Assembly: GCA_022605405.1 (NCBI GenBank)
Contig: JABYQQ010000003.1
Coordinates: 1,302,001 to 1,366,000 of the forward strand
Direction of reading: 5' to 3'
Length of the DNA stretch: 64,000 nt
Origin: Earliella scabrosa
Lineage: Eukaryota; Basidiomycota; Agaricomycetes; Polyporales; Polyporaceae
Shown: one piece after another, positions 31,616 to 54,600 of the stretch
Layout: each line of letters begins with the position of its first letter
Numbering within the stretch: the first letter of the stretch is position 1
The notes under the pieces: generated by a model
The model's input: the letters and a program-made list of their open reading frames with translations, nothing else
The model's database searches: none
What the model was told of the DNA's origin: nothing
Translations under genes and position numbers: made by a program

Positions 31616-32054
31616 GATTGCAGAGAATGTAGGGGTAGCAGGTGGATGGGGGGAGGGGAGAGAGGGAGTACGCGCACAGGGAAGGAGAGCTTAAGGAGCG
31701 AAGCAGCTGGAGCACAACTCGGACTGCCAAATGGGCGTCTCTGCGGAGATCAACGTGCACGTGGCAAGACGTCACATGCAGACGCACAACCCTTCGCCAA
31801 CAGAGGCGCCCGTGCTCTCCAACGCGTTTCGATACCGTTCGCGCTCAGCTACACTGCCCACAGTGCCCAGTGCCCAAGTACTCATACTCCCAGTACTCCG
31901 AGTGCCAAGGCATCGACAGCCTGCATTGCAATGTCATCGCTGTTTCGGTATGGGGCAATATGAACAAGCTGCGTGGGAGCTACAGGAGTAACAACGGAGA
32001 GGTGTGTACTATCACCGCGCGTGATGACTGGAGGAGAGCGTTGGAAACATGGAG
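31616..32054. other. Promoter side of the RhoGAP gene and left edge of the accessory region
   Basis: Contains a purine-rich stretch (31640-31670) upstream of the RhoGAP start. No supported gene. Homology to the duplicated segment starts at about 32055. Confidence 0.4.
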
Positions 32055-32256
32055 CAATGCGATATGTCCGTGGAACCACATAGGGATGTTTGCGTACTAA
32101 TGCCGCATGTGTCAGGTCATAAACTCGTCTGCTTGGATTCAATCTCTGCGGACGAGAAGGGGAGTATCAGCACAGCGATTCCGGAGTTCGTCGGACTTCA
32201 AGCTTCAAGTTCAACTTTCAACCTCAAGCACTTGCTGTCCGAACTGAATCAGCGCT
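32055..32256 (-). repeat. Copy 1 of the kinase 3'-end repeat
   Basis: About 200 bp related to 34088-34290, 54400-54600 and 56401-56603; the last is the true 3' end of the intact kinase gene. It keeps signatures such as the run ending CCGAAC-x-AAATCAGCGCT. Confidence 0.7.
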
Positions 32257-32598
32257 CTCTGCTTGGGAGTCCCCGTCGCTCAGGCGGGACGGAACAGTGT
32301 GGTACTTGGGTGTCCCGGTCGCTGCAGTCGGAGGGTACGTCTCAGTAAGTGTCAGTGCAGCCTGGCAGATCCAAATTGAGTCATTCCGCAGTGCAAGATC
32401 TAGAGGGGCAGCACAGCGTCGGATGCACGGGCAAATGTGATCAACGTTGCGGAATCGTCTGGATCCGCCATTCATCCTCGTACAACAGGAGCTCTCTCCT
32501 AGACGCCGTGGTATGTTGTATAGTATATAAGCAGCTCTAACGATCGCCGTTCATTACTTGAACAGCAAACTTGACGTCGCGCCTACACCATCGCTCCC
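32257..32598. other. Upstream region of the left HNH-like gene
   Basis: Shared with 54601-54910, so it is part of the duplicated unit. The left copy has about 50 extra bases near 32500-32550. It presumably contains the gene's promoter. A TATATAAG at about 32522-32530 lies about 70 bp upstream of the ATG. Confidence 0.45.
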
Positions 32599-33880
32599 AT
32601 GTCCTATCAGACTCACCCTCCGGCTCGTGAAGCAGCCTTGCGGCGCACGGTCCTCGAAGTCACAAAATCCGCCATCTTGGACAACACCTTGAGGCATCGG
32701 TATCACGCCTACCTCGCCGTGTTGGACCACCCCGATAACGCGGACTACCAACTACTCATGAATGAGCATGAACGCCGCGGCAAGTTCTACGGGCCGTCTT
32801 TCTTCCGGGGCAGGACCGAAGACGTATTCCACTTGATGCGCAGCGCTGCTTCGACGTTCGGGGCGACCGGTGGCTCACGCTACGTATGTGCAGCAGTTGC
32901 GGTACACGCATGGGCGGCTGGCGGCTCACCTCCGAAATTTGGGGAGACGGCGCGGAAGAGTATCGCGCGGGCACTGCATGGCCTTGCACGTCAATGGGTG
33001 CATGCTATGCTTCAATTGACTTGTAAAGCACTCTCCTCCTTCGCACCATACTAAGCACTGACACGACAAAACAGGTCTTTACAGCGACGCTGAAGTCGAC
33101 GCTGACTTCATCAGGTATGGCTCGGGACCTTCGAGTCGCCCAAGTAGCACGGATCGCGATCGCGAGCGCAAGGCAAATGCGTATGACGTGAGTATGAGCC
33201 TGGCTGCTCCGATGCAAGTGCTCACGGAATGTGGTGGTAGGTTATGGTACGAGACGGGTTCACTTGCCCTGTGACTGGGCAAGCACCGTCCAAGGGTGGC
33301 GGCACTCCAGTTCCAGTTTATATCCTCAAGAAACTTGTCACCCAAAGCATGGTACGATCTATAGTACCCACGAGTGAATGCCCTGTCCGGCTGACATCCG
33401 TCTATTCGAACAAGGACGACCCCTCCAACGCCCGTTGTATTGACTTGTTGTCACACTTCTGCCAGTGTAGCGATCCAACCTTCAACGTCATCAGCCCGCG
33501 TAATACGCTCCTGCTGGAGTCGAGCCTCCAATATCAATTCAAAATCGCTGGCTTCATATTTGTGGCCACTGAGGTACGCAGTCTCACACACCCGTATCTA
33601 TGCCTAAATTGACGTTCTGACTGTTTGACTGACTCCACAACGGCAGGTACCAAATCGGTACAAAATCGTCCCTACTCGGTCCACAGAGTACTTCATCACC
33701 ATGCTGAAAACCCGATGGAATAATCAAGGCTATGTCACCTTCACCGACCATACCTGCAAACCTGGCGCAAGCACACCCCTTCCCAGCGCCGAGCTCCTGC
33801 GAGCGCACGCGATGCTCACGACGGTGCTTAGAGGCACCGTCCTCCTCTCTGAGGAAGACCAGGACAAGTTTTTCGGGTAA
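32599..33880 (+). CDS. HNH-like (HNH_2-type) protein, catalytic histidines apparently lost, left copy
   Basis: Begins MSYQTHPPAREAALRRTVLE. Four introns are inferred: from about 33025, at 33188-33240, at 33356-33419, and one before VPNRYKIVPTRSTEYF. The core reads VMVRDGFTCPVTGQ, then PVPVYILKK, then FNVISPRNTLLLESSLQYQF and IFVATE. This spacing (Cys-x-Val-Thr-Gly; a hydrophobic block where AHI is usual; N-x-SPRN-LLL; then the L-H-x-x-F region) matches the fungal HNH_2 family. The expected His residues read Tyr and Gln, so nuclease activity is doubtful. The frame is otherwise intact, ending KFFG. The assignment is by pattern only and the role is unknown. Confidence 0.6.
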
Positions 33881-36250: not shown

Positions 36251-37583
36251 ATGACAACAGTGACACCGCCGCTTGACGAGCAGGCCCAGGAGAGGGAGCA
36301 GCACCACGCACGCGTCCGTCAGGTGGGGTTAATCCATATTCTACTCCGAGCCTCCCTTAATATTGCTTTTGGGGACACCGGCGTGCATGGTGACGGGGTT
36401 GACCACATTTACCATTTCCTCTGCAGCGCGTGACAGATGCTCGCAACAAAGTCTTGCGCACGACTGGACAAGTCATGCACGAGGGGCTCGCAATAAGCGC
36501 TGAAGTGCTGAGCTTAGTCCCTATTCCGGGACTGCAACAGGCCGTGAAGACGCTTCTCGGCATGTGGGAGGCATTCGACAGGATCCAAGTAAGCTCCAAG
36601 TTTATCCCCTTGTCTTGAAGCCGTCTGAAGTTCCTCCCCTTCAGACGAATAGAGCATTTTGTCTGCATTTGATTGAGCTGTGCGCGAACAGTCTGGTCAC
36701 ACTCTGCGACCATTGCTCAACGTTAGGCCTCGTCCGTCAAGCGAAGAATGTGTTGGACCATCTGTTAGATGCCACTGTTACGCAAGTCTATCAATGCCCA
36801 TGGCTGTGTTCATTCATGCTGACTGGCCGATAGGTGCTACGGCAACATTCTCTTTCACCTTGAGAAGTTGTCAAATCAAGGTTTTTTGAAACAGTTTCTG
36901 CGACGAGAGACGATCCGAGACGATCTCAAGCAGTGCCGGCGAGAATTAGTTAACGTCCAGACGGCATTTCACGTGAGTAACTGAATCTACGCGACAGGAG
37001 AAAGTACTCACATAACTCACGGCGCCTTCATTGGCAGGTCTCACTCTCACTCGAAACGTTCAAGGCAACAACCGATATACAGAACACCTCCAAGGTTGAA
37101 GATGAGGGGCTGCAGGCGCAAGACGACATGCAAGGCGACGCGGACCTCGACACGCAAGACGCCGCGGAGCTGGAGGAGCTCGTCAGCAAGTCGCTCCGCA
37201 GCACCAGCGACGAGATGGCTTGCACGCTCCAGGTCACCCTCGAGGATCTACCGGAGACGTTCAAGACAATCCAGCGTGTATTGGAAGAGCATGTAGAGGA
37301 GGGTGAAGGCGAGTCGGCTGTACGCGTCTTTGTCTCCACAGCTACCGGTGCTGCATTCCCCCCCCCGCGCCGGAGTGGTGCAGAGCACGAGCAGCGCCTC
37401 CACAACTTCCAGTTCTGCAAGCAAACGAGGACGTCGTGCCTTACTCGAGCTCGAATACTTGGAGACCATAAGCCATCTAGTTCGCCGCTTGCTCAAAGAA
37501 TCCCAACAAGACGTAACGCTCCCGAGCTTCACGATCACTCAGTACGAGGTTGAATGGGACGAGAGCCTCGGCCTGAGCTCCGA
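36251..37583 (+). pseudogene. 5' half of an MLKL-like helical-domain/pseudokinase gene, cut by a retrotransposon
   Basis: Exon 1 starts MTTVTPPLDEQAQE. Later exons give EVLSLVPIPGLQQAVKTLLG, TNRAFCLHLIELCANSLVTL, CYGNILFHLEKLSNQGFL and LRRETIRDDLKQCRRELV, the four-helix pattern of the MLKL N-terminal/HeLo-like domain common in agaricomycete kinase-like proteins. A frame change near 37340 is explained by an intron (37278-37341 or 37293-37341), so it is not damage. The exon continues to FTITQYEVEWDESLGLSSD and stops where the LTR begins, inside the Asp codon context. As it stands the transcript would run into LTR sequence and stop after a few tens of codons at most. The 3' half lies at 50839-53241. 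Confidence 0.8.
37580..37583. repeat. Target-site duplication CCGA, left copy
   Basis: CCGA directly precedes the left LTR and recurs at 50839-50842 after the right LTR. Removing the element and one copy joins the two gene halves in frame. Confidence 0.8.
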
Positions 37584-38588
37584 TGATGGGTGTGCTCCGG
37601 CTCTGTGTGCGGAAAGAAACAACTAAACCACACTAAGAAACCAAGAACTCGAGAAGGTGGTGCGAGGTAGGGGATCTGGTTCCCGGGTTCGCAGGACGCG
37701 GACGCGGAGTCGACTCTCGAAAGGCTCTCGCGAAGGATCGCAGAGACCGCGGGGGAAGACTATGGAAGAGAGCTCGAAGGGGTGTGGCTAACTCAAGCTC
37801 TGCGGAGGGAACCCGCAGGACGGTGTTTCGAGATGAGAAGAACGCAAATCGCAGGCGCAAACGCAAGTCGCTGTCGCAGACGCAAACGCAGACGCAAACG
37901 CACGCGTATTCGCTGAGTCTCGATGGGTGGGGGATTCGATTCCCTGGGGCTCCTGCCCTCGCACTACTCTAACTACACGATCCTGCGACCGTCCGCAACT
38001 CCGGAACGCGACAACCGAAAAACTTCTCGTATCAACCCTTCCACCGCCCGCACCGTCCGCCTGATCCTCTCCCAACTGCGCGTGCCTTCGCCACATCCCC
38101 GTCCCGTCACCCTCAAACGCGGTCTTCGATCGCAATCTCGCCTCTCGACGAATCAGCCTCGAGGCTACCGGACGGTGGCTGTGCCCTCGATCCTCGGCAC
38201 GTCCCTCCGCACGATCGCGTCCTCGCGCTCCCAAGTCTCGTCCGTCGGTCGCGATAGCTCGCAAGCTCGTGAGTGGCCAGCTTCGCATGACTCGGCCGAA
38301 TGCCGCGCTCGCGACCCCCGCGCGCGATGTTCTTCCGCATCCTTGGCTCGCGGAACGTGCGTCCGAGGCTGCCTCGTCCCTCGCGTTGCGGAGCTCCGAC
38401 CGGACCGTCGGGGAAATGAAGGGGTCTCGAAGTCGCGCGTGTTTTCGTGTGGTAGGGCCGCGCGCAGTCGGAAGGCTGGTGGGGCGCGGCTGCCGTCCGC
38501 GGGAAGGTCGCGCGAAGGGTTCGCGCGAAGGCGCGTCGCAGAGCGCGGGTCGACGAAATCGGGGCATGGCCGGTGCAGGTGCACAACA
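37584..38588 (-). repeat. 3' LTR (left)
   Basis: On the minus strand it begins TGTTGTGCAC and ends CCCATCA, so it has standard TG...CA ends. It is offset from the right LTR by exactly 12,250 bp with no difference seen by eye. It contains CGCAAACGCAGA-type hexamer repeats at about 37848-37905. Confidence 0.95.
37848..37905. repeat. CGCAAA/CGCAGA hexamer array in the LTR
   Basis: Several alternating 6-bp units (CGCAAA, CGCAGA), present again at 50098-50155 in the other LTR. Such LTR-internal arrays are often enhancer-like; function here is unknown. Confidence 0.7.
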
Positions 38589-38604
38589 TCTCCCCCCCGC
38601 TAAT
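38589..38604 (-). other. Polypurine tract next to the 3' LTR
   Basis: On the element's coding strand the sequence reads ATTAGCGGGGGGGAGA immediately before the LTR's TGTTG. It is the expected primer site for plus-strand DNA synthesis. Confidence 0.8.
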
Positions 38605-38640
38605 ATCGGGACTGTCCCCAGTCCCTCGAAGACGGACGGG

Positions 38641-38648
38641 GATAAAAG
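38641..38648 (+). promoter_or_regulatory. TATA-like box of the antisense gene block
   Basis: GATAAAAG lies about 40 bp upstream of the ATG at 38684 and just inside the LTR. It is on the strand opposite to gag-pol and could drive the accessory genes. Confidence 0.45.
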
Positions 38649-38683
38649 GGGGGAACGCGCAGAAAGGGTTTCCGCACCTAACC

Positions 38684-39270
38684 ATGTCTTCGCCGCTTCC
38701 TCCGGACCTTCGCGAACGCGCCATCTCCGTCGCGATCCAAGCTCTCGAGCGAGCCGTCTTCGACCTCGAAACGCTCGCAGACGCCAACACCGAGTCGGAC
38801 GCGGGTCACATCGCGGACATGTACATCGGGATCATCCAGCTCCTGGTATGTCCTGTCTGTATTCCGTCTCGCGTGCGCTAACCCCGCACTCGTAGCGTCC
38901 GCTCATAGTCTTTTACTCCTCGCTTAACGCGGCGGCGCAATACGTGACTCGCACGCGCGACGCGCTTGAACGCGGTTGGCCCGACTTTGGGACGCGCTTC
39001 GCGAACGAGTTCTCGGACCAGGTTGTCGGGGTCCGCCGCAGCGCGCGTCTCGACAGCTTGATGACCGAGGTTGCCGCCGTCCGCGTTCGACTCCGCGAAG
39101 TTCGCCTCATCCGCCAGACCCTAGCCCGCGCCAACCAACACGACGTCCACTTCCTCATCCGCCTCGACGACGTCATCCTGGCCTTGGACCGCGAACAGAC
39201 GGGGCTCGACTTCGAAATAGCGGCGTTGCGCGACCAGAACAGGCGGGCGCTCCTTGCCGCGGACTGCTGA
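38684..39270 (+). CDS. Antisense accessory ORF 1, helical coiled-coil protein of unknown function
   Basis: Two exons (38684-38845 and 38896-39270) joined over a 50-nt GTATGT...TAG intron give a 178-residue protein starting MSSPLPPDLRERAISVAIQA. It is almost entirely predicted helix: LERAVFDLETLAD in exon 1, then RPLIVFYSSLNAAAQYV, VRRSARLDSLMTEVAAVR, and a C-terminal heptad stretch (RLDDVILALDREQTGLDF). No Cys/His cluster, signal peptide or enzyme motif is seen. It is transcribed against gag-pol and is the first of three genes in the block. Its plan (short helical protein ending in a coiled coil) resembles ORF 2. I do not recognise the family. Confidence 0.7.
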
Positions 39271-39448
39271 GGGATGTTCGCGATGGGCGGCCGCGGCATA
39301 GGGGTCGCGGGGAACGGTCCATAGAGGGGATAGGGTAGATCGCGATTGTCGTTGATACGGAAATTCTGTAGCCCTTGAGACGCCACCAGTGTCGAGGGAT
39401 TTAAGTCGTCGAGCGTCGCAAAGACGTCCCGCAACATCCTCTCGCACC

Positions 39449-40093
39449 ATGCCTTCACTGGGTTCCCAGATGGTTGAGCGCGCGATCTCGTACCGCGAAA
39501 TGATCTCGCGGTTCTACCCTCTCGTCCGCCTTCGCACTGAGCACCTGCTTGACGCCATCGACGCTCAAGTGGCCCGCGGCCCCGGTCCGGGTCCCGTTGG
39601 TGCCGGCACCGCTCTAGACTTCGCCCTTCTCGTCGACCAGCTTGCGGAGTGTTACGTGAGCGCTGCTTCCATTTTTGATCGCCGGCGCCGCTTAATGAAA
39701 TCGCAGATCATCCTCACCGCACTCCTCGAGGGCGACGGCGAATTCCACTCCGGCGTCAAGGATCGACTCCGCCTCGCGTTCGCGTCGGTCGAGGGCGGCC
39801 CCACGCTCGTCGAGCAGTTCAACAAGACCGTCGACGCCGCGCGCCCCGGTATCCGCTTGAGGTACCTCGAGGCGTACCGCGCTGTCTTCGCGTACGAGCA
39901 GGCCACCGTCGCTTCCATTCAACAGATCGCCGCGCGCCAGCTGTCACACGTCGCCGGAGAAGCCCGCGCGCGCGTCAAGTTGCTGCAGGACGACATCCAC
40001 CGAATTGACCAGGAGACTGCCCGACTTGGGGGCGCAGTCCCTCAGCGCAGGTCCCTGATTGACCGCCTCGACACTGGTTCTGAGGAGTTCTGA
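39449..40093 (+). CDS. Antisense accessory ORF 2, helical protein of unknown function
   Basis: An intronless 214-residue frame starting MPSLGSQMVERAISYREMIS, in a favourable context (CACCATGC). It contains helical segments LRTEHLLDAIDAQVARG, DFALLVDQLAECYVSAAS and FDRRRRLMKSQIILTALLE, then a C-terminal coiled coil (ARVKLLQDDIHRIDQETARL). The ERAIS motif near its start recurs in ORF 1, hinting that ORFs 1 and 2 may be distant paralogues; this is tentative. A TTTAAG box lies about 50 bp upstream of the ATG. It sits 178 bp after ORF 1 and 233 bp before ORF 3 on the same strand. No known domain is recognised. Confidence 0.7.
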   Translation: MPSLGSQMVERAISYREMISRFYPLVRLRTEHLLDAIDAQVARGPGPGPVGAGTALDFALLVDQLAECYVSAASIFDRRRRLMKSQIILTALLEGDGEFHSGVKDRLRLAFASVEGGPTLVEQFNKTVDAARPGIRLRYLEAYRAVFAYEQATVASIQQIAARQLSHVAGEARARVKLLQDDIHRIDQETARLGGAVPQRRSLIDRLDTGSEEF

Positions 40094-40326
40094 GGAGGAA
40101 GGGGCGGCGATGTAGCGTAGAAGCCCGCGACCCTGTACTTCGCCGTTCGTCGAGCTGAAATTGTAGTGCGCGCGCGCAGCTCTTGTCCGCCGCGCCCGAG
40201 TTCATAACGCGTGCCTTCCGTCCGGTTCGCCCTTCAGCCCCTCTTCTCGTTCCGCCTTCCGCCCCTCGCTCAACTCGTCCCTCGTCTTCTTCGTCTCAGC
40301 CCATCCCGCACACCCGCCTCGCCACC

Positions 40327-42357
40327 ATGTCCTCGCCTCCGCCTCCCGAGTCCTCCAACACCATGGACACCCGCGCCGACGATCCCGCGACCGACGCCGC
40401 CGAAGTTGAGCTCCAGTCCAACGACGAAGACCTGCGCGTCGGCACTCCGTACGCGCCCGACGAGCTGCAAGAGCTCCTCCGCCTGTACACGCCCGAGGAG
40501 CTCCAGTCTGGCGGCGAGGAGGCCGCGAAAGACTTCGCGCGCCGTTTCGTCCACATCGCCGTAAGTCCCGCGCCCCTTCGCGACTCCTGTCCGCAGCCAC
40601 TAACCGCTTCGCAGTACTCGCTCGAGGACCCGTTCCAGTCGGACGACCTCTTCCCGGAGTTTTGGGAGCGGTTCGCTCCGCACGCTTCCCCTCGCTTGCA
40701 GGAGGTCGTCCTCCTCGTCTTCTCGGTCCGCACTCGCGAGTCCCGGAGCGCCTCGCTCGAGGTGGAGCTCGCGGACTTGGAGACCAGCCGCCCGGACCAC
40801 ACGACCACGCCGCGCCAGGAGAAGGTGGTCAGGGCCCGCATGTTGGTGACCGACTGGGAGCGTAAGTCCTCGCGCGCCCCTCCTCTCTTGTCTTCTTCAG
40901 CTAACCGTCCCTCCTTTTGTCCCCCAGTCAAGCGCATCCGGGAGATCAAAGACTTCCGCCTGCTCAGGTCGGAGCCCATTCCCCTCCCGGTCGGCCTTGC
41001 CATCCTCGCCGGCGGCCTCTCTCGCCACTACCCTCGCCGCTCGACCGCGGAGCCGCCTAGCGCGCCCGTGACTCCCGGAGCGCCCTCGCGTGCACTGCTC
41101 CCTCCCGCGACGATCTCGACTCCGGTGCGCATCAAGAAGGAGAAGCCCGATCCCGCGCCGGCTAAGGGCAAGCGCCGCGCGGTCTCGCAAGATGTCTCCG
41201 CGGACGAGGCTGATGCGGCCGCTGACTCCGATGTCGTCGAGGTGAGCGAGGTCGTCCGTCCCCCTCCTGCCCACGGCACGCGCGCGCAACGCAAGGAGAA
41301 GATCGCCGCGCGGCCCGAGTCCGTCCGCAAGAGGGCCAAGGTCGTCGAGGTCTTGGAGTCCGAAGAGGAGGAGCTCGCGACCGCCGCAAAGCCCGATGAC
41401 GCCGCAGACGACCCGCCCGCTTCCACTACGCCCGCCGCCCCCGTCGCCATCCTTCCCAACTCGAAGTACGCGCTCGAGTTCTTCGAGCCCTGCGACGAGT
41501 GCAAGACGTGCAAGTTCCCCATCTGCGTCCGTACGCACGACGAGCGCGGCCTCTCCTGCGACTTCTGCGGGCACCGCTCGCGGAACATGCAGTGCACCCG
41601 CCGCGGCCTGAACTCGTACGGCGAGTTGAAGACCAAGAGTAGGTCGACCTCCGTCGCGCTTCGTCGGTTCTACGCTGACTCGTCCCTTGTCGCAGAGAAG
41701 GGCGGTCGGCTTCTCGCGCAGTACAACGGCGTCGGTTTCGTCTTCCGCTCCTTCAAGACTCAGCTGCCCGAGTACCGCGTGCAAGCTGTCCAGGCCGTCC
41801 GCGCGTTCGAGAACGACCCGCCCAAGATCCGCGTCGCGCGCCCGAAGGAGCTGGCCGCGCGCGCCGGGCCTCCCGCTCCCACCGCCTACCCCATCATCGA
41901 CCAGAACGGGTTCCTCCTTGAGGCCTACGATGGCGCCGCGCCCGAGAAGTCCGCGAAGGGCCCGCCGCTCCCGGAGTGCTACCCGCCGGAGAAGACCCCC
42001 GAGCCGACGCCTGCGCCCGCGAAGAAGAAGAAGGCCAAGACGTCGTCGGAGGGCGCGTCGGCTTCGGCTTCGAAGTCGTCTCGCGAGGTCGCCCCGCCTG
42101 CGGACCTCAGCCCGGCCGTGTCGAAGAAGGTCGCCGCATGCCGCAAGCGCGCGAACGTTTTGCTCGGCGAGATCGTCGAGCACGTCGAGGAACTCATTGC
42201 CGTCCGCGACCAGGAGGAGGAGTACACCGGCCAGGACTTCGGTGAGGCCGACCTGGACGATTCGGTTCGCGTTCCCGACCTGCTGACCTTCGCGGAGGTC
42301 GTCGACTCTCGCGAGTCCGACGCGCGGGTGTGGACCGTGCTCCGCAAGAATCAGTAG
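40327..42357 (+). CDS. Antisense accessory ORF 3, Cys-cluster protein with basic (NLS-like) stretches
   Basis: Start ATG at 40327 in a strong GCCACCATG context. Introns 40561-40614, 40862-40927 and 41639-41695, each with GT-AG ends and a multiple of three long, leave a 617-residue product; the frame also reads through without splicing. The N-terminal third has a conserved-looking helical part (DELQELLRLYTPEELQSG; FQSDDLFPEFWERFAPHAS). A disordered, Pro/Ala/Glu-rich middle has basic patches (KGKRR, RKRAK). Then follows a Cys cluster: CDECKTCKFPIC, and SCDFCGHRSRNMQC after a short spacer, which looks like a zinc-binding module. The tail has KKKKAK and a coiled coil near LLGEIVEHVEELIAVRD. A nuclear DNA- or chromatin-binding role is plausible but inferred. 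Confidence 0.75.
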   Translation: MSSPPPPESSNTMDTRADDPATDAAEVELQSNDEDLRVGTPYAPDELQELLRLYTPEELQSGGEEAAKDFARRFVHIAVSPAPLRDSCPQPLTASQYSLEDPFQSDDLFPEFWERFAPHASPRLQEVVLLVFSVRTRESRSASLEVELADLETSRPDHTTTPRQEKVVRARMLVTDWERKSSRAPPLLSSSANRPSFCPPVKRIREIKDFRLLRSEPIPLPVGLAILAGGLSRHYPRRSTAEPPSAPVTPGAPSRALLPPATISTPVRIKKEKPDPAPAKGKRRAVSQDVSADEADAAADSDVVEVSEVVRPPPAHGTRAQRKEKIAARPESVRKRAKVVEVLESEEEELATAAKPDDAADDPPASTTPAAPVAILPNSKYALEFFEPCDECKTCKFPICVRTHDERGLSCDFCGHRSRNMQCTRRGLNSYGELKTKSRSTSVALRRFYADSSLVAEKGGRLLAQYNGVGFVFRSFKTQLPEYRVQAVQAVRAFENDPPKIRVARPKELAARAGPPAPTAYPIIDQNGFLLEAYDGAAPEKSAKGPPLPECYPPEKTPEPTPAPAKKKKAKTSSEGASASASKSSREVAPPADLSPAVSKKVAACRKRANVLLGEIVEHVEELIAVRDQEEEYTGQDFGEADLDDSVRVPDLLTFAEVVDSRESDARVWTVLRKNQ

Positions 42358-43027
42358 GGGCCTCGCGCTCTCGTCGCGGGGCGCGCCTCAGTCGTGCCGC
42401 TATCGCAGCTCCGCTGTTGGCGCGCACATTCCGCGATCCTGGAGCTCGTGAATGCTGAGGCCGGTCCTCGCAGTCGCGCTTCGCGGGTCGCGGTCGCAGG
42501 CCGCTCCGCCGTGGTTCCCGGGCTTCCCTTTCTCGTCGTCTTCGTCCTCGCGCTCGCCCGTCTCGCTCTCCCTTCGCATCCCGCTCTCGCCATCGCTCTC
42601 GCCCGTCCCCCGCATCGCATCGCATCCCAGTCCCGTCCCGTCTCGAACTCGTGTCCCGTCGTCAAGTATCGTAAAAATGTATCGTAAAAGTAGTCGTAAG
42701 CTTCGTTTTGTGGCTGTTGTTTTGTAGTTTTTGTTTTCGTCATTTGCTTTCTTGTTTTATCAATAAACTGTGTGATAGAAAGAGTGTGTGATTGACTTAA
42801 GTAAAAGTGTGACTGGTCTTCGAAGTAGTAAGTAAAGGAATGTCCCGCAGGGAAGTCCCGCGGGACGGTTCTGCGGAAAGAGTTCGCGAAATGGGTATAT
42901 AGTAAGGAAAGTGTGTCGCAAAACAAGGCCGCGATAGGCGTTCGCGGGCTGTCGAAAGTCAGAGTTCGGAAATCGAAAAGAGCAAGTGATCGCAGGATAA
43001 CCGTGTCCGAGTCATGTATCGTACCTC
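42358..43027. other. Spacer between antisense ORF 3 and the internal polypurine motif, with AATAAA signal
   Basis: No gene is supported. T-rich sequence and an AATAAA (42772-42777) on the + strand about 415 bp after the ORF 3 stop look like its polyadenylation region. Pol ends on the other strand at 43089, so the two transcription units converge. Confidence 0.55.
42772..42777 (+). terminator. Polyadenylation signal AATAAA of the antisense block
   Basis: Canonical hexamer in T/A-rich sequence downstream of ORF 3; the only clear one in the spacer. Confidence 0.5.
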
Positions 43028-43042
43028 CTCCCCCCCGCTAAT
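43028..43042 (-). repeat. Second polypurine-tract-like motif next to pol
   Basis: The 15-mer CTCCCCCCCGCTAAT here is identical to 38590-38604 beside the 3' LTR. On the coding strand it is a G-run polypurine tract located just after the pol stop. The antisense block lies exactly between the two copies. Confidence 0.8.
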
Positions 43043-43088
43043 GTTGTCGACGTCCTCGTCGACGTCCCATCTTCGCGCACAAGAGCGC

Positions 43089-46000
43089 CTAATCTTCTTC
43101 GGCCTCCTCGGGCTCTCCCAGCCCTTCGTCCTCAAACGTCTCCTCGCTCTCCTCCATCTCGCGGATTCGTCTCGCGTCGACATCTAAGTCCTCCATCCTA
43201 AAAGGTATGGGGCTCTTCCTCGCGAGATACGGGATCAGTCGGAACGCGGCGATAGGGCGATCGTGCACGGCGCCGTCGAGTTCCGCGACGATGTAAGCGC
43301 CGCCCCGGTTGCGCGAGATGACCACCAGCGGACCCAAGTATCGCGCGCGCATCTTGCGGTTTAGCGACTTCTCGATCGCAGTATTCCGCATGAGAACCAA
43401 ACGACCGGGCTTGAAGTCGAAAGCCTTTGTCGTATATGCGTGGTGCTCCTCGTACAGTTCCGCGGCGCGAACTCGGCTCGCGTAGACCTTCGAGCGCAGT
43501 CGCGAGATTTGCTCGGGGCGCTTCTGCAGGGCGATCGCGCGCTGGGTGATGAGCTCGGTGGTCGAGATCATTTTGTTAGCCGTCGGCAAGAGGTAGGTTG
43601 CTTCCGCGATGTCGAGGGGCATGATCGGGTGCGTGCCTGTGACTGCATAGTACGGCGAGCAGCCCATTCGGCGTCGAACAGTGATCCGGTCCGCCCAGAG
43701 GACAGAGTAGACTCGCGAGACCCACTGACTCGGGTCTCCCTCGCAGGCCTTGTAGAGTGCGTCGCGTACGTGGAAGTGCGGGCGCTCGACGATTCCGTTC
43801 GCCTGCGAGTTGTAGCCTGAGATCCGAATGTGGTAGACGTGGTAGGTCTTCGCGATGTACTCGAGCGCGGCGACAAAGGGCGTCCCGTTGTCCGAGATGA
43901 TCTCGCAGACGGCGCCCCAGCGACAAAGCAAGTCCTGGTAGATCCAGTCGCCGATCGCCTTCGCGGTCTGCGCCGTGCTCGCGCGTCCTTCGCAGTAGGT
44001 CGTCATCGCGCAGCGCGCGTGGAAGAAGTATCGGTACCGCCCCGGCATCTCCATGCAGTCGACGTGCACACGCATCATCGGGGGCGCGGGGATGGGGACC
44101 GTTGGGGGAATGCGAACTTTGGTGGTCTGTCGCACTTGGCACTGATGGCACGACCGCACGTACCACGCGATGTCCGCCTTCATCTCGGGCCACCAGAAGC
44201 GGTCCGCGAGGAAAGAGGTTGTCGCGGCAATCCCGCGGTGTCCGACGTAGTCGTGCATCTCGACGAGCGCTTGAGGTCGCTTCTCCGCCTCGAGGACGCG
44301 ACGATGGTGCCCATCGCGTCCTACTTTCCACAGGCGGTCGTCGCGGAGGAAAAACTGGGAAGCGTACTTCGCGAACTTATCTGCCTCGCGTGATTCCATC
44401 GCGGGTTGTTCGCCAGTCGCGAGCCAGTGTTTGACTTCTTCGATTCTGAAGTCGAAGTCGCGCGCGATCGCGGTTCGCGGAAAGTCGCTGTACGGCGGCG
44501 GCGCGATCACAGGGAGCTTCGCGGCGGTTCCGCTCGTCTGCTGCATGAGAGTCTCGACTTCGTCGATGCTTCGCGGGACTGAGAAGTCGATCGCAGCGTC
44601 CCCGAGTCGCGGAGGAGGGTTTATAAGGTGCATGAAGCCGTACATATTGTCGACCCAGTCCTCAAACTCCTCCCCGTCGTCCTCGTCGGGCTTGTCGTCT
44701 GGCTGCGCGGGTCGTCTGCTGAGGCCGTCCGGGGTATGGCTCTTTCCCGGAACGTGCACGAGGTCGAAGTGGAACATCTTGATCGCGATGATCCAGCGAT
44801 TCATCACCGCAGATGGCGCGACGTCAGGGTTCGCGAGCATGTCCTTAATCGCGGTCGCGTCCGTCTCGACGACGAGCTTGCGCACGCCTACCAAGTGGAA
44901 GCGGAGCGCGCGAAGCGCGCGGAAAAGACCGTAGAGTTCGAGTTTCGGCTGCGAGAATCTCGCTTCGCGATCGTTCAGGGTGATGGAACAGAACCTGCTG
45001 TAGTAGCGCCTCCGCGGGTCCTCTTGGTCTTCTTGACATAAGTGGAAGCCGACCGCGATCTTAGACGTATCGACGGACAGAATCACGGGAGCGTCGGACT
45101 CGTAGTCGATCGCGCGGAGCGCCGGAGACGCGAGGAGCGCGTCCTTGAGGGTCTGCATTGCGAGCTCTTGTTCCGGGCCCCATTCGAACTGCGCGTCCTT
45201 TCGCAGAAGACGGTTGAGAGGGTGCGCCTTCGTCGCGTAGTCCTTGATAAAGATCCTCGCGACTCCGACGGTCCCTAGGAAAGCGCGAACCTCAGACACA
45301 TTGGCACACGGGCCCCAGTTCAGGACAGCCTCGACGCCTTTCGGTTCCGGGACGCGACCTTCCGGGGTGCAGTGGTGTCCGACCGCGGTGAACTCCGGCG
45401 CTGCGCACCGAATCTTCTTCCCGCTGAAGGTGCCTCCTGCGTGCTTGACTCGCTGAACGATCCGATTGACGTCCTGCAGATGCTCCCACACGTAGCGCCG
45501 AACTCCGGGATTCTCGGGGATCGTCTCGTAGGTTCCGTCCTCGCGGCGGTATGCGCTCGCGGGACCGATCACCGTAACGTCGTCGATGTAGGGGATAGTG
45601 TACGCGGGGATCTCGGGTTGTAGGATGAAGGTTACGTCGTCGTGGAATATGGGAACTGAGTTCGCCCAGCCCATAGGAAGTGTGGTGAGGCGCATCGCGC
45701 CGAAGGGTGTTTGGAAGGTGGTAAGGTCTCGCGACTCTTCTTCGAGCTCGCGTTCGTCATAGCCGACGTAGAGATCGAGCGTGGTTCCGCAGGCGCGTCC
45801 CGCGAATCTCTCCGCCATATGGTCGGGGATCGGGGGCACGCCGCTGTGCTGAATCGTGACCTTGTTCAGCGGCTCGAGCGAATGGACGATGCGGATGTTC
45901 CCGTCCTTCTTGAGCACGCAGAACCATCGCGACCGGTAGGACGCGTTTGACGGCTCGTAAACTCCGGAGTCGATCTTCTTGCGGATGAGCGCGATGACCT

Positions 46001-46874
46001 GATTGTAGATGCCGGGAGGGATGGGGAAGTTCTTCTCGATCCACGGAACATGCGGGATGACCGCGAGCTTAACCGGCGGGAACATGTCGCGACGGAAGTG
46101 CCCGCGCTCGGAGTCCTCCCAAGCGAAGCCCTCGTTCTGCTTGCACATCAAGTCGTCGAAGATCGCGAGTTCCTCGGGCGTCAGCCACTCCGCGTGATCC
46201 TCGTGCAGCTTCTCGCGACGCTCCGCGGTGTAACGTCCGGTGGGTTCGAAAGGTTTGGGGTTGGGGTCTAGTGTAGGCATGTTCTCGAGAGGGTCGCCGA
46301 CGTGGTTTCGGACGATGCGGAAGTGTTGTGGGAGCTCGGTCGGCTTAGGGTTGACCTTGAGCGCTACCGGTTTGTACTTCTTTTTCGTCTTCAGCAGTAC
46401 TTCGACCTCCTCCTCTTCGCATGTGGGAGTCGCAGGACGGCCGTCCGGCTTCGCTTCGCGGGGTCTCGAATACGAACCCGATCGCGAGCGCACCGGACGC
46501 CGTCCGAGAGATTTCGTAGGGTAGACAGGCCTGACGCGCCCACGTGACCGCGTCCCGCGGATCGCGTCTGTAGGCGCTCGGGTATCTGGTGTCGCGCGAC
46601 CGCGCTCCGGCTCGGAAGTCGTCGCATGAGGGGTATCGGTCGCGCGGGTAGAGTCGAGGGAAACCGAAACTCGAGACTGAGAGTTGAGATATGTATGGAT
46701 TTCTGGTTTTACGCTGGGGTCGTCGCTCGCTAATAAATACGCTTCTTGGATCGCGGTAGCTGAGGTATCTTCGAGGGCTCTATGCGCGGTGACGTATATC
46801 TGCCTCGTTTTCGCGTCGTAGTCCAGGACGAGGGCCACCTCTCCCTGACCGGAAATCAGATCATCGAAGTCCGA
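43089..46874 (-). CDS. pol: Pol polyprotein (reverse transcriptase, RNase H, integrase), -1 frame to gag
   Basis: The open frame is entered from gag by a -1 shift at 46874-46880; no ATG lies at its start and the first plausible codon at 46838 is GTG. Reverse transcriptase: PIPPGIYNQVIALIRKKID, FQTPFGAMRLTTLPMGWAN, and the catalytic YIDDV. RNase H begins with VILSVDTSKIAVGFHL. Integrase has the zinc domain (H...H...CHQC around HDYVGHRGIAATT and VRSCHQCQ), then the D,D,E residues in VHVDCMEMPG, ISDNGTPF and GIVERPHF. The C-terminus holds a GPY/F-like segment (ARYLGPLVVISRNRGGAY) and an acidic tail ending EEAEED. No chromodomain and no disabling mutation are seen. Confidence 0.95.
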   Translation of the reverse strand, partial: SDFDDLISGQGEVALVLDYDAKTRQIYVTAHRALEDTSATAIQEAYLLASDDPSVKPEIHTYLNSQSRVSVSLDSTRATDTPHATTSEPERGRATPDTRAPTDAIRGTRSRGRVRPVYPTKSLGRRPVRSRSGSYSRPREAKPDGRPATPTCEEEEVEVLLKTKKKYKPVALKVNPKPTELPQHFRIVRNHVGDPLENMPTLDPNPKPFEPTGRYTAERREKLHEDHAEWLTPEELAIFDDLMCKQNEGFAWEDSERGHFRRDMFPPVKLAVIPHVPWIEKNFPIPPGIYNQVIALIRKKIDSGVYEPSNASYRSRWFCVLKKDGNIRIVHSLEPLNKVTIQHSGVPPIPDHMAERFAGRACGTTLDLYVGYDERELEEESRDLTTFQTPFGAMRLTTLPMGWANSVPIFHDDVTFILQPEIPAYTIPYIDDVTVIGPASAYRREDGTYETIPENPGVRRYVWEHLQDVNRIVQRVKHAGGTFSGKKIRCAAPEFTAVGHHCTPEGRVPEPKGVEAVLNWGPCANVSEVRAFLGTVGVARIFIKDYATKAHPLNRLLRKDAQFEWGPEQELAMQTLKDALLASPALRAIDYESDAPVILSVDTSKIAVGFHLCQEDQEDPRRRYYSRFCSITLNDREARFSQPKLELYGLFRALRALRFHLVGVRKLVVETDATAIKDMLANPDVAPSAVMNRWIIAIKMFHFDLVHVPGKSHTPDGLSRRPAQPDDKPDEDDGEEFEDWVDNMYGFMHLINPPPRLGDAAIDFSVPRSIDEVETLMQQTSGTAAKLPVIAPPPYSDFPRTAIARDFDFRIEEVKHWLATGEQPAMESREADKFAKYASQFFLRDDRLWKVGRDGHHRRVLEAEKRPQALVEMHDYVGHRGIAATTSFLADRFWWPEMKADIAWYVRSCHQCQVRQTTKVRIPPTVPIPAPPMMRVHVDCMEMPGRYRYFFHARCAMTTYCEGRASTAQTAKAIGDWIYQDLLCRWGAVCEIISDNGTPFVAALEYIAKTYHVYHIRISGYNSQANGIVERPHFHVRDALYKACEGDPSQWVSRVYSVLWADRITVRRRMGCSPYYAVTGTHPIMPLDIAEATYLLPTANKMISTTELITQRAIALQKRPEQISRLRSKVYASRVRAAELYEEHHAYTTKAFDFKPGRLVLMRNTAIEKSLNRKMRARYLGPLVVISRNRGGAYIVAELDGAVHDRPIAAFRLIPYLARKSPIPFRMEDLDVDARRIREMEESEETFEDEGLGEPEEAEED

Positions 46875-49438
46875 AAACCCGCGCGCGACGTCTGCGATTG
46901 TTTCGGGCCTTCACCTCGCGCATACGTCGGTAGGGTGAGCTCGCGGCGCGAGTTCGGACAACGAACGGTGATCGTCTGACGACCGTCTGGCTTATTGACT
47001 ACGGTGCCGGAGACTAAGACGTCGAAGGGTCGACCGAGGAGGACGTCGTAAGAGGCGTTCCGCACGACGTGCATCTGTAGGTAGACGACGACTCCGGGGC
47101 CGAGTTCGACTGCGACGTTCCTCGCGAGACCGAGCGTAGGGTCGACTGTGCCGTTCGCGCTGACCATCCGCAGACTAGAGGACGGGTCGTAAGGGATCTT
47201 GAGCTCGAAGCACTTCGCCTCGCTGATCGCGACAATCTGCGAGCCCGGGTCGAGAACGCATTCGGTCGGGACGTCCGAGTTGTTGACATGCGCGAAGATA
47301 GACCTCAACTTGTGAGTCTTATCCCCGACGACGATGTCAGGTCCGACGTCCTCGTCCTCATCGCGCGAAAACGTTCCGCGGCGTACGCGGTACATCCCGC
47401 GGGGTAGCTCCTCGTCTTCATCATCCGACTCCGCCTCTTCGACCGTCTGGGACGCCTTCTTCTCCCGCGAAAGCTTGAAGGTCTCCGCTTCATCCCCGCT
47501 GTGCGTCCACACCGTCGGCTCGTCCTCCTCCGGACAGTCCTGCACGAACGTCTTGTACGTCCGTCCCTTCCCCTTATCCTCGCCCTTCTTCTTCGTCCTC
47601 TCATCTCCCTCGTCTTCTTCGTCCTCTCCCGCAGCCTTCTCCCGCGCGGCGCGAATCGCGAACCGCCGCGAAGATGTCGCGTCGTTCAGCATCTTCCGGA
47701 TCCCCGGAGACACGCTCAAGAGCTCGACCGGGGTCATGGTGACCGACTGCGCTTCGCCGAAGCTCCTCTGAAAGACTCGCTTCTCCGCGTTGGGGTCTAC
47801 GATCGCGGCGGTGTGACGGTACGCGGGCTCGGTTCGCGAAGGAGTGTCGGTCGCGCTGTTCGCGCGCCTGTGGTTCCCGAAGGCGAAGTCGCGCGCGATA
47901 GGCTCGGCTGTGACTGGGGGTCGCGTCTTCGAGTACGGGTGGATCGGGATGTTCTCGTCGTCCTTGTCGCGAGAAGGCCCTTCATCCCGCGCGACCCGCT
48001 GCATAGCCTCCGCCCGGTCTGACAGGTGCGGTGGCGCATCGCGCTTCCGCGGCTGCTCGCGATCCTTCTCAGACTCCTCCCGCGTGTGCTTCTTCGGACG
48101 CGTCGTGATCTCGACTCCGTCGAACCGGACCTTGCGCTTCTGTTTCTCGAGCTCCAGCTGACTCTTGAGCTCGCCCGCGCGCTGCATCAAGACTGCGAGT
48201 TCCTCCTCGATCGTGCTCTCGCTCTCCTTCGCGCCAGCGTAGTACGGGTCTTCTTCGGGCTCGACGACTAGCATCATGTGGCCGACTTGGGTAGGGTTCT
48301 TCTTGCCGGGATTGAGGTCGTGCCAGACTAGAACGCGCTCGCGCATGCAAGTCCCGGGAAGGTTCCGAGGGACGAAGGTGCCTTTCGGAAGGAAGATACG
48401 TCCTCCATCGCCGCGTTCGATGAGACCGTTCGCGAGATCTTCGCGAGCCGCCGGGCAGGTCTTAGAGTGGCACCCAGCGGTCCCGCAGTAGAAACAGTTT
48501 TGGTCCTCGCCTGCGAAGCCCAGTCCCGCATTGCTCAGCCGGACGTTCGCAGGGGGTCCTCGCGGTATGTCGTTCCGCTGCCAGCCTCCTCCTCGCGGCG
48601 CGTCGTCGCGCGGGAACCCTCGCTGTCCTCCGTTCTCATTGCGGAACAGGGTACGAAAGGTCTCCGTCATCGCGCTCAGCATCTCTTGCTTGAAGGACTC
48701 CAAAGCCGGCTCCTGCTTGACTTCGCGCGCGGGCGTCTGCGCGCTCTGGGTCGCGAACGCCGAAGTGCCTAAGAGAGACGACCCCGCGCCGGACCGAAAC
48801 CGATGGTCGGAGCCCTGAAGGAGTACGCCGAAAGGGCCTTGGTCTTCGAGGCAATAGGTCATAGCCTCGTGCACTTCCGCGACGGAAAAGGGGTCGCTCG
48901 GGTGCTTGTCGGGGACCTTGTTCGCGAGACGAGCGCTAACGGCTGCGGCCTTCTCGGGCGGGACAAGGCTGAGGAGCGCGGCTGCAGCGTCATCCTCTGC
49001 GATGCCGGGTCGCGGCTTCGTCGACAGGTATCGGAACATAGGATAGAACTTCCGGTAGAACTCGGAGTATTCCTCGAGGGTGTGAATCCCCTTTTCGCGG
49101 GTGTCGTTGACTAACTTGTTAAGCTGTGCCCGTGACCAGACGTGACTAGAGTCCGATCCGACGTAGAACCCCAAGACTTCATCGCGGAACTTCTCGTAGG
49201 TGTCGGTAGGTCCCTTGTTCGTGAACGTCTGCAAGACCTTCCAGGTTTTCGCGACGTCGATAGGCACGTATAGGAGCGCGGCCTTTTTCTTCTCTTCTTC
49301 GGATGTCACGCCCTCGCGCGCGAGTAGGCGCTCGAGCTCCTCGAAGTACTCCGCGACGGCATCTCGCGAAGACGGATCGTACCGCGGAGCCTCCTTGCTT
49401 CGCTTCAGGGGCAGCTTGTCGAATCCGGTTGAAGCCAT
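46856..49438 (-). CDS. gag: Gag-protease polyprotein of the retrotransposon
   Basis: 860 codons starting MASTGFDKLPLKRSKEAPRY. The N-terminal half is a Ty3-type capsid (DVAKTWKVLQTFTNKGPTDT; RAQLNKLVNDTREKGIHTL). A zinc knuckle follows: CFYCGTAGCHSKTC, a non-standard spacing. A charged, Arg/Glu-rich middle leads to a retropepsin-like aspartic protease: CVLDPGSQIVAIS holds the catalytic Asp (D-P-G-S in place of the usual D-T/S-G), and YDVLLGRPFDVLV is the second conserved block. The frame ends TSMI-stop at 46856-46858, 16 nt after the slippery heptamer, so the protease belongs to gag rather than to pol. Confidence 0.93.
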   Translation of the reverse strand: MASTGFDKLPLKRSKEAPRYDPSSRDAVAEYFEELERLLAREGVTSEEEKKKAALLYVPIDVAKTWKVLQTFTNKGPTDTYEKFRDEVLGFYVGSDSSHVWSRAQLNKLVNDTREKGIHTLEEYSEFYRKFYPMFRYLSTKPRPGIAEDDAAAALLSLVPPEKAAAVSARLANKVPDKHPSDPFSVAEVHEAMTYCLEDQGPFGVLLQGSDHRFRSGAGSSLLGTSAFATQSAQTPAREVKQEPALESFKQEMLSAMTETFRTLFRNENGGQRGFPRDDAPRGGGWQRNDIPRGPPANVRLSNAGLGFAGEDQNCFYCGTAGCHSKTCPAAREDLANGLIERGDGGRIFLPKGTFVPRNLPGTCMRERVLVWHDLNPGKKNPTQVGHMMLVVEPEEDPYYAGAKESESTIEEELAVLMQRAGELKSQLELEKQKRKVRFDGVEITTRPKKHTREESEKDREQPRKRDAPPHLSDRAEAMQRVARDEGPSRDKDDENIPIHPYSKTRPPVTAEPIARDFAFGNHRRANSATDTPSRTEPAYRHTAAIVDPNAEKRVFQRSFGEAQSVTMTPVELLSVSPGIRKMLNDATSSRRFAIRAAREKAAGEDEEDEGDERTKKKGEDKGKGRTYKTFVQDCPEEDEPTVWTHSGDEAETFKLSREKKASQTVEEAESDDEDEELPRGMYRVRRGTFSRDEDEDVGPDIVVGDKTHKLRSIFAHVNNSDVPTECVLDPGSQIVAISEAKCFELKIPYDPSSSLRMVSANGTVDPTLGLARNVAVELGPGVVVYLQMHVVRNASYDVLLGRPFDVLVSGTVVNKPDGRQTITVRCPNSRRELTLPTYARGEGPKQSQTSRAGFRTSMI
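46874..46880 (-). other. Slippery heptamer G GGT TTT for -1 ribosomal frameshifting
   Basis: In the gag frame the codons are GCG GGT TTT CGG. The heptamer G GGT TTT fits X XXY YYZ exactly in frame. A -1 shift here leads into the open pol frame and bypasses the gag stop 16 nt downstream. Confidence 0.75.
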
Positions 49439-49812
49439 GGGTGGCGTAGTTGCGATAGGAAGTGGATTGAAAGGGATAGGGGGTGGGATAGGGAAAGGGG
49501 GTGGAGATTGGGTTCGCGGGTTTGCTCGCGGAAGGATTTCGCGGAGAGGGGTATGGAACGAATCGCGGGGAGAGTCCTCGAGATCGGTAAGAGGAGACGA
49601 ACCGAAGATGTCTAAATCGATCCGCGTTCTAGGTGTGCGGGGGACCTCCAGCTGACTTCCGCGGGGCGGTGAGCCTGCGTCGGAGTCTTCGATGGGGGTT
49701 AATTCCGCGTCGAGTTCTTCGCGAAATTGTCGGAGGGCAGCGGCCGTCCTTTCGATGTAGATGTCGAGGGAATCGTCTAGGGACCTGTTACCGGCGGTGG
49801 CAGATTTACTCC
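49439..49812 (-). other. Retrotransposon leader (5' untranslated region)
   Basis: About 375 bp between the primer-binding site and the gag ATG with no coding frame of note; it would contain packaging signals. Confidence 0.5.
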
Positions 49813-49830
49813 CCCTCGCGGTGGGCTCCA
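49813..49830 (-). other. Primer-binding site
   Basis: On the coding strand, three bases after the 5' LTR, the sequence starts TGGAGCCCACCGCGAGG. It is complementary to a tRNA 3' end (...GGGCTCCA). The donor tRNA is not identified. Confidence 0.65.
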
Positions 49831-49833
49831 GAA

Positions 49834-50838
49834 TGATGGGTGTGCTCCGGCTCTGTGTGCGGAAAGAAACAACTAAACCACACTAAGAAACCAAGAACTC
49901 GAGAAGGTGGTGCGAGGTAGGGGATCTGGTTCCCGGGTTCGCAGGACGCGGACGCGGAGTCGACTCTCGAAAGGCTCTCGCGAAGGATCGCAGAGACCGC
50001 GGGGGAAGACTATGGAAGAGAGCTCGAAGGGGTGTGGCTAACTCAAGCTCTGCGGAGGGAACCCGCAGGACGGTGTTTCGAGATGAGAAGAACGCAAATC
50101 GCAGGCGCAAACGCAAGTCGCTGTCGCAGACGCAAACGCAGACGCAAACGCACGCGTATTCGCTGAGTCTCGATGGGTGGGGGATTCGATTCCCTGGGGC
50201 TCCTGCCCTCGCACTACTCTAACTACACGATCCTGCGACCGTCCGCAACTCCGGAACGCGACAACCGAAAAACTTCTCGTATCAACCCTTCCACCGCCCG
50301 CACCGTCCGCCTGATCCTCTCCCAACTGCGCGTGCCTTCGCCACATCCCCGTCCCGTCACCCTCAAACGCGGTCTTCGATCGCAATCTCGCCTCTCGACG
50401 AATCAGCCTCGAGGCTACCGGACGGTGGCTGTGCCCTCGATCCTCGGCACGTCCCTCCGCACGATCGCGTCCTCGCGCTCCCAAGTCTCGTCCGTCGGTC
50501 GCGATAGCTCGCAAGCTCGTGAGTGGCCAGCTTCGCATGACTCGGCCGAATGCCGCGCTCGCGACCCCCGCGCGCGATGTTCTTCCGCATCCTTGGCTCG
50601 CGGAACGTGCGTCCGAGGCTGCCTCGTCCCTCGCGTTGCGGAGCTCCGACCGGACCGTCGGGGAAATGAAGGGGTCTCGAAGTCGCGCGTGTTTTCGTGT
50701 GGTAGGGCCGCGCGCAGTCGGAAGGCTGGTGGGGCGCGGCTGCCGTCCGCGGGAAGGTCGCGCGAAGGGTTCGCGCGAAGGCGCGTCGCAGAGCGCGGGT
50801 CGACGAAATCGGGGCATGGCCGGTGCAGGTGCACAACA
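49834..50838 (-). repeat. 5' LTR (right)
   Basis: 1,005 bp, apparently identical to 37584-38588, with the same TG...CA ends and internal hexamer array. Promoter for gag-pol. Confidence 0.95.
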
Positions 50839-50842
50839 CCGA
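50839..50842. repeat. Target-site duplication CCGA, right copy
   Basis: Matches 37580-37583. Directly follows the right LTR and continues into the kinase-fold exon. Confidence 0.8.
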
Positions 50843-54399: not shown

Positions 54400-54600
54400 T
54401 GGGATAGGTCCGTGGAACTACATAGCGATGTTTGCGTACTCATGCCGCATGTGTCAGCGTCTGCTTGGATTCTGCGGACGAGAATGGGAGGATCAGCACA
54501 GCGATTCCGGAGTTCGTCGGACTTCAAGTTCAAATTTCAAGCATGGTGCACTCGCGCACCGCATCGTCCGGCTCGCTGTCCGAACTAAATCAGCGCTCAT
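54400..54600 (-). repeat. Copy 3 of the kinase 3'-end repeat
   Basis: About 200 bp related to the end of the intact kinase gene (56401-56603), lying upstream of the right HNH-like gene and abutting the inverted exon-1 fragment. Confidence 0.7.

What the first reader, a model, noticed from the sequence alone, without database searches (positions are those of the whole stretch)
38684..42357. LTR retrotransposon carrying three genes on the strand opposite to gag-pol
Between pol and the 3' LTR, where simple gypsy elements have nothing, this element has three + strand genes in tandem: two helical coiled-coil proteins (178 and 214 aa) and a 617-aa protein with a Cys cluster and basic stretches. Each has its own ATG in a good context, and none resembles gag, pol or env. 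A retrotransposon that carries a conserved antisense module could use it for self-regulation, targeting or host interaction. Seen: open frames, splice sites and order. Inferred: function and expression.
Basis: partly seen in the sequence, partly recalled or inferred. Interest (0 to 1): 0.9.

Follow-up and report, generated by a model that had tools for sequence, protein, structure and literature searches.

The report
Retrotransposon with three backward intron-bearing genes
A jumping element in the wood-rotting fungus Earliella scabrosa carries three extra genes with predicted introns, written backwards relative to its own replication genes; the genes travel with the element, are kept by natural selection, and likely help it control its own activity in the nucleus.

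Summary
A Ty3/gypsy element (37584-50838; identical 1,005-nt LTRs; 4-bp target duplication) carries three genes (178, 214 or 197, and 617 aa) on the strand opposite gag-pol, between pol and the 3' LTR. A genome search found 17 copies of this module; each gene is intact in 15 of 17. Changes among copies show purifying selection (pN/pS 0.08, 0.07, 0.18; pol 0.08-0.12). A second family in the same genome, with pol 64-69% identical, has a three-gene module in the same place, orientation and order. Genes 3 and 1 are homologous across the families; gene 2 is not recognisably so. Three more distant relatives lack the module. All genome hits lie in such elements (20 of 21 beside pol; one at a contig end). 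Each edge of the module carries a polypurine tract next to a hairpin. Antisense extra genes of unknown function are known in plant elements and in fungal Boty, so this is a new variant of a known kind: three genes, introns, a mushroom host, a doubled polypurine tract. Most likely, though inferred, the proteins are nuclear regulators of the element. Expression was not tested, and conservation in other species could not be shown.

The parts
37584..38588 (-). 3' LTR (1,005 nt, TG..CA), 100% identical to the 5' LTR
   Evidence: ends
38589..38625 (-). Polypurine tract abutting the 3' LTR, with a 7-bp hairpin on its inner side
   Evidence: tract identical in 14 of 14 copies whose alignment covers it
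38640..38649 (+). TATA-like box (predicted promoter of gene 1), 42 nt before the ATG
   Evidence: similar boxes 51 nt (B) and 45 nt (C) before gene 1; function inferred
38684..39270 (+). Gene 1, exons 38684-38845 and 38896-39270, 178 aa
   Evidence: pN/pS 0.079; homologue in the second family
39449..40093 (+). Gene 2, 214 aa (197 aa if 39656-39706 is an intron)
   Evidence: pN/pS 0.070; helical low-confidence model
40327..42357 (+). Gene 3, four exons, 617 aa, Cys cluster and basic stretches
   Evidence: pN/pS 0.183; homologue in the second family, E 4.7e-11
43027..43063 (-). Second polypurine tract with a 7-bp hairpin, just 3' of pol
   Evidence: both tracts present in 8 of 8 copies held with this flank
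43089..46910 (-). pol open frame: RT, RNase H, integrase zinc-binding domain
46856..49882 (-). gag open frame with aspartic protease domain (first ATG listed at 49438)
49834..50838 (-). 5' LTR

Best explanation
This is a Ty3/gypsy retrotransposon lineage of Earliella scabrosa that carries, between pol and the 3' LTR and on the opposite strand, a conserved set of three accessory genes with predicted introns, whose proteins likely act in the nucleus as regulators of the element itself. Shown: the structure, the presence of the module inside independently inserted copies (own LTRs, own target duplications), homology of genes 1 and 3 across two families, and purifying selection. Follows from the anatomy: introns on this strand are antisense in the genomic RNA, so they would not be spliced out on the way through RNA, and they persist in the copies; an intron-bearing gene can ride a retrotransposon only this way round. 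Inferred: the genes would be transcribed from their own TATA-type promoters inside the element, independently of gag-pol. The gene 3 protein (Cys cluster, basic nuclear-localisation-like stretches) would bind the element's DNA or chromatin, and the gene 1 and gene 2 proteins would be its partners, together setting LTR transcription or countering silencing, much as accessory proteins do in retroviruses. I put about 0.45 on the nuclear regulatory role and over 0.95 on a conserved, selected gene set.
For: Genes intact in 15 of 17 copies each, splice borders kept; copies L033, L034, L035 have a gene 3 intron 2 of 67, 68, 64 nt yet an intact spliced frame, which supports splicing. pN/pS 0.079, 0.070, 0.183 over 16 copies against W, pol 0.075-0.123 over 5. 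Second family with the same layout. An NCBI protein of Earliella scabrosa is identical to my spliced reading of relative B's gene 1. 10 of 10 copies with both ends read have perfect 4-bp duplications. TATA-like boxes 42-51 nt before gene 1 in W, B, C. Basic stretches and 6 or more Cys in gene 3, no strongly hydrophobic segment in the seven products measured. Analogy: Grande's antisense protein is nuclear and has its own promoter (PMC7264820, passages).
Against: No expression data. No Pfam or PDB family supports DNA binding; the Zn(2)-Cys(6) model stays below its cut-off. Gene 3 varies most between B and C (40% identity, dN/dS 0.66 with dS near 1). Gene 2 is not recognisably related between families. 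One gene 3 donor is changed in copy A. No homologue from a clearly different species was found.
Confidence: 0.45

Rival explanations
1. The proteins are replication or particle cofactors: they would help packaging, nuclear import of the pre-integration complex or reverse transcription, with the doubled polypurine tract as a second plus-strand start.
For: A second tract with a hairpin lies just 3' of pol in W, A, B and C and changes its letters together with the LTR-side tract between families. Selection on genes 1 and 2 is as strong as on pol.
Against: Three relatives with intact pol frames and identical LTRs have no module, so the module is not needed for replication in general.
Confidence: 0.22
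2. The module is an integration-targeting set: gene 3 would tether the integration complex to chosen chromatin.
For: Cys cluster and basic stretches; no chromodomain hit in pol; 4 pairs of the 21 module loci lie within 60 kb, 0.49 expected under uniform placement; CG core in 12 of 12 target duplications (10 W copies, B, C).
Against: The CG core also occurs in 2 of 3 relatives without the module, so it is not due to the module. Clustering may only reflect tolerance of repeat-rich regions.
Confidence: 0.18
3. The antisense transcript itself matters: it would pair with genomic RNA and limit copy number, the proteins being incidental.
For: Antisense transcription is discussed in this sense for plant elements (PMC7264820, passages).
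Against: Changes avoid altering the amino acids and shifted frames of genes 1 and 2 do not show this (dN/dS 0.9-3.2).
Confidence: 0.07
4. A one-off capture of host genes or a nested passenger element without function for the retrotransposon.
For: Introns fit uptake as DNA rather than from mRNA.
Against: Present and selected in two diverged families; every own-genome hit of the five queries is in such elements; Pfam shows no transposase.
Confidence: 0.04

Closest known systems
Antisense additional ORFs (aORF-3R) of plant Ty3/gypsy elements: maize Grande gene23, rice RIRE2, Silene Retand, bean PvRetro13 (PMC7264820, PMC11963269; passages read)
   Same: Position between pol and 3' LTR, antisense, in most copies of a family, conserved, function unknown; Grande's protein is nuclear with its own promoter
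   Different: Here three genes in a row with introns, in a basidiomycete; no TRP28 domain in the products scanned; sequence comparison with the plant proteins was not made
Boty-like elements of Botrytis cinerea with the antisense gene brtn (Zhao 2011, seen only as cited in PMC7264820 and PMC8365987)
   Same: Fungal Ty3/gypsy element with an antisense gene between pol and 3' LTR
   Different: One gene reported, ascomycete host; relation to the present proteins not tested
Antisense genes of HTLV-type retroviruses (named in PMC11963269; details recalled)
   Same: Antisense gene near the 3' end of a retroelement, regulatory role
   Different: No sequence relation claimed; different host, three genes here, predicted promoter outside the LTR

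Membership tests
Ty3/gypsy LTR retrotransposon | Paired LTRs with TG..CA ends and a target duplication | tested here: met
Ty3/gypsy LTR retrotransposon | gag with protease, pol in the order RT, RNase H, integrase | tested here: met
   (integrase by its H2C2 zinc-binding domain; the catalytic core did not reach the table)
Ty3/gypsy LTR retrotransposon | Primer binding site matching a host tRNA | not tested
   TGGAGCCCA starts 4 bases inside the 5' LTR in W and B; no tRNA compared
Chromovirus | Chromodomain after the integrase | tested here: not met
   no chromodomain among Pfam hits of pol
Antisense aORF-3R class | Gene antisense to gag-pol between pol and 3' LTR | tested here: met
   relatives A, B, C
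Antisense aORF-3R class | Present in most copies and as conserved as other element proteins | tested here: met
   15 of 17 copies intact for each gene; pN/pS against pol. Copies were found through the module, so copies that lost it would be missed; pol matches of at least 90% identity all lie by a module copy
Antisense aORF-3R class | Own promoter and transcript | not testable with these tools
   TATA-like boxes only
Retand TRP28 (PF04195) protein | PF04195 match | tested here: not met
   no such match at E <= 1 in seven products scanned
Fungal Zn(2)-Cys(6) factor | Zn_clus (PF00172) above gathering score | tested here: not met
   14.1 bits (B) and 10.8 bits (C) against a cut-off of 21; not listed for W. 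Resemblance of the six-Cys spacing is by eye

The most novel reading that the evidence does not exclude
A mushroom retrotransposon lineage has evolved a complete antisense accessory cassette: three intron-bearing genes with their own promoters, framed by two polypurine tract-hairpin signals, encoding a nuclear regulatory complex for the element. The antisense orientation is the device that lets intron-bearing genes survive passage through RNA, and the inner tract is a second plus-strand start.
Probability: 0.3. Interest if true: 0.8.

Novelty: new variant of a known kind. Interest (0 to 1): 0.62.

Why it matters
Antisense extra genes of LTR retrotransposons have been described for years without a known function. 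Here are three at once, under selection close to that on pol, in two diverged families of one species with recent insertions (LTR pairs 100% identical in W and B, 99.6% in C). That makes the question testable by RNA-seq, localisation and DNA-binding assays. The introns would be a clear natural case of the rule that an intron-bearing gene can ride a retrotransposon only in antisense.

Tried and rejected
One-off capture of a host gene: rejected, as all own-genome hits of the three window proteins (E <= 0.001) and of relative C's genes 3 and 1 (E <= 1) lie in these elements. The search is not deep: the window's own proteins did not pick up relatives A-C there, so a remote host homologue could be missed. 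Env-like protein: no strongly hydrophobic stretch (highest 19-residue mean 1.5 in the seven products measured). Module as cause of the CG-core target sites: weakened by the same core in 2 of 3 module-less relatives. Genes 1 and 2 as paralogues: clear in the second family (hhalign E 1e-30), weak in the window element (5 of 500 shuffles as good; hhalign E 0.19). Structure: one single-sequence model, too weak for a fold search, so no fold search was run. Wider protein search: gene 3 found one protein, nearly identical in its exons; the gene 3 alignment found none; the gene 1/2 alignment found five, one named (E. scabrosa) and four unnamed short-contig pieces closely matching the second family. 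Two viral-contig scans gave no relative. PDB profile searches: two matches at E 0.18 and 0.36, none convincing.
Full report
What is there. The window lies in a 51.7-Mb genome (G000, contig C3). Contig C1, which holds relative B, is 5,425,013 bases long. A database protein identical to B's spliced gene 1 product is named as Earliella scabrosa C8Q76DRAFT_789739, with a longest contig of that same length. So the host is Earliella scabrosa, Polyporales. The element has 1,005-nt LTRs at 37584-38588 and 49834-50838 without a difference between them; the repeat finder had shown only 300 nt. gag with an aspartic protease and pol with RT, RNase H and integrase zinc-binding domain run on the minus strand. 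The target duplication is CCGA.

The antisense genes. Gene 1 has one predicted intron, gene 3 has three. Gene 2 contains a 51-nt in-frame GT..AG stretch that may or may not be spliced; read as coding, it shows 6 synonymous and 2 non-synonymous changes among copies. In the window all three gene 3 introns (54, 66, 57 nt) are multiples of three without stops, hence the 676-aa frame. Intron 2 is 66 nt in 12 of 17 copies; in L033, L034 and L035 it is 67, 68 and 64 nt, and their spliced gene 3 frame is intact. This supports splicing. Pfam shows no family above its cut-off in the three products of the window, the three of B, and gene 3 of C; C's genes 1 and 2 and A's genes were not scanned.

Copies and mobility. 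A DNA search of the own genome found 17 copies of the module (a lower bound): 15 near full length, the window's included, and 2 partial. Each gene is intact in 15 of 17, gene 2 tested as the unspliced frame. A pol match lies beside each of the 17 on the opposite strand. Both outer ends were read for 10 copies, and 10 of 10 have perfect 4-bp duplications at their own places. For an eleventh (L008) only the left flank was read; it ends in ccat. The other six were not read at the ends.

Selection. Against the window copy, 16 copies pooled: gene 1 has 111 synonymous and 26 non-synonymous changes (pN/pS 0.079), gene 2 spliced 114 and 23 (0.070), gene 3 399.7 and 219.3 (0.183). Copies share history, so these counts are not independent; two copies are truncated and add little. 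Polymorphic sites by codon position 1/2/3, in 15 sequences (the two truncated copies left out), are 7/6/36, 8/4/32 and 47/31/130. pol of five fetched copies, one partial, gave dN/dS 0.075-0.123.

The second family. Elements with pol 64-69% identical over their main stretches (53% over one N-terminal piece of B) turned up in the same genome. Three were studied: A on C11, B on C1 and C on C23. Their LTRs are 742 nt and 100% alike in B, 762 nt and 99.6% alike in C; A's other LTR was not in the fetched piece. A, B and C hold three genes in the same antisense place and order. Genes 1 and 2 are paralogues of each other there. A's gene 3 has a changed first splice donor. A fourth module lies at the end of contig C42, where pol would be off the contig. 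Window gene 3 matches that of B and C (hhalign E 4.7e-11, probability 97%; 0 of 200 shuffles each). Gene 1 matches more weakly (E 1.3e-4, probability 53%; 0 of 500 shuffles against each of four proteins). Gene 2 does not: 179, 174, 257 and 251 of 500 shuffles score as well. The gene 1 intron and gene 3 intron 2 agree in place and phase; gene 3 intron 1 agrees in phase and neighbouring residues but was not aligned in one column; intron 3 does not agree. Between B and C dN/dS is 0.20, 0.08 and 0.66, with dS 0.95-1.46 and so rough; shifted frames of genes 1 and 2 give 0.9-3.2.

Relatives without the module. Three elements with pol 36-38% identical (C19, C2, C20) have their 3' LTR 111, 90 and 90 bases after the pol stop codon, and identical LTR pairs. 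The module is thus a feature of one branch. Fragmented relatives on C3 and C27 gave no module hit but are incomplete.

Edges of the module. A G-rich polypurine tract abuts the 3' LTR, as expected. A second copy lies just 3' of pol. On the + strand both read CTCCCCCCCGCTAAT in the window family (both present in 8 of 8 copies held with that flank) and CTCCTCCCCACCGAAAT in A, B and C. Next to each of the 8 tracts of W, A, B and C is a 7-bp perfect hairpin whose letters differ (GGGACTG, GTCGACG, TGGACTG, ATCGACT) but still pair. In each case 1 to 10 of 2,000 shuffles of the 30 bases reach 7 bp; A and B are near copies, so the 8 are not independent. In two window-family copies the outermost pair of the inner hairpin is lost. 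This suggests a constrained signal, possibly a second plus-strand start, or the scar of how the module was joined. Central polypurine tracts are used by HIV-1 (PMC4393142, start of abstract in a search listing).

How it likely works. Because the genomic RNA is the other strand, the introns of these genes would not be recognised in it and are copied intact; the orientation therefore fits intron-bearing genes taken up as DNA. TATA-like boxes stand 42, 51 and 45 nt before gene 1 in W, B and C, and 55 and 56 nt before genes 2 and 3 in B. Gene 3 has a Cys cluster (C-x2-C-x7-C-x10-C-x2-C-x8-C in W with one further Cys inside; C-x2-C-x8-C-x8-C-x2-C-x6-C in B and C; read) and several basic stretches. 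I infer nuclear accessory regulators; every step from expression onward is untested.

What is known. A review describes antisense additional ORFs between pol and the 3' LTR in plant elements and in Boty, function unknown (PMC7264820, passages). A 2025 paper describes them in Retand (PMC11963269, passages). The Botrytis paper mentions brtn (PMC8365987, passages). The word intron does not occur in the main text of the two plant papers. My nine answered searches listed no paper whose title or abstract start describes such a three-gene set or a doubled tract in a mushroom element. The library is partial, so this is not proof of novelty.

Limits. One genome only; no RNA evidence; database hits outside the genome closely match its own sequences, so they are probably the same or a very near species. 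Confidence in the anatomy is high, in the mechanism moderate.

Noticed in passing
37580-37584 and 50839-50842; flanks in L001-L007, L044-L055, L011-L015, L022-L027: The 4-bp target duplications have CG in the middle in 12 of 12 module-bearing elements read at both ends (10 window-family copies, B, C) and in 2 of 3 module-less relatives; CG makes up 9.6% of dinucleotides. The only other flank read on one side in the window family (L008) lacks it. A CpG-preferring integrase would explain this.
   Followed up: partly
38589-38625 and 43027-43063: A polypurine tract with an adjoining hairpin is doubled, one on each side of the antisense module, in both families; hairpin letters differ but pairing is kept.
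   Followed up: partly
G000 C1 2.78-2.85 Mb and C11 1.52-1.57 Mb: Module-bearing elements cluster: 4 pairs within 60 kb among 21 loci, 0.49 expected under uniform placement. Possibly centromeric or other repeat-rich regions.
   Followed up: partly
32052-32687 and 54394-54999: Direct repeats (86-92% identical) about 22.3 kb apart flank the element; the element may sit inside another repeat or between tandem gene copies.
   Followed up: no
46856-46910: The gag and pol open frames overlap by about 55 nt, so pol would need a frameshift or a restart.
   Followed up: no
40561-41695: All three gene 3 introns of the window copy are multiples of three without stops, leaving a 676-aa frame even unspliced.
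   Followed up: partly
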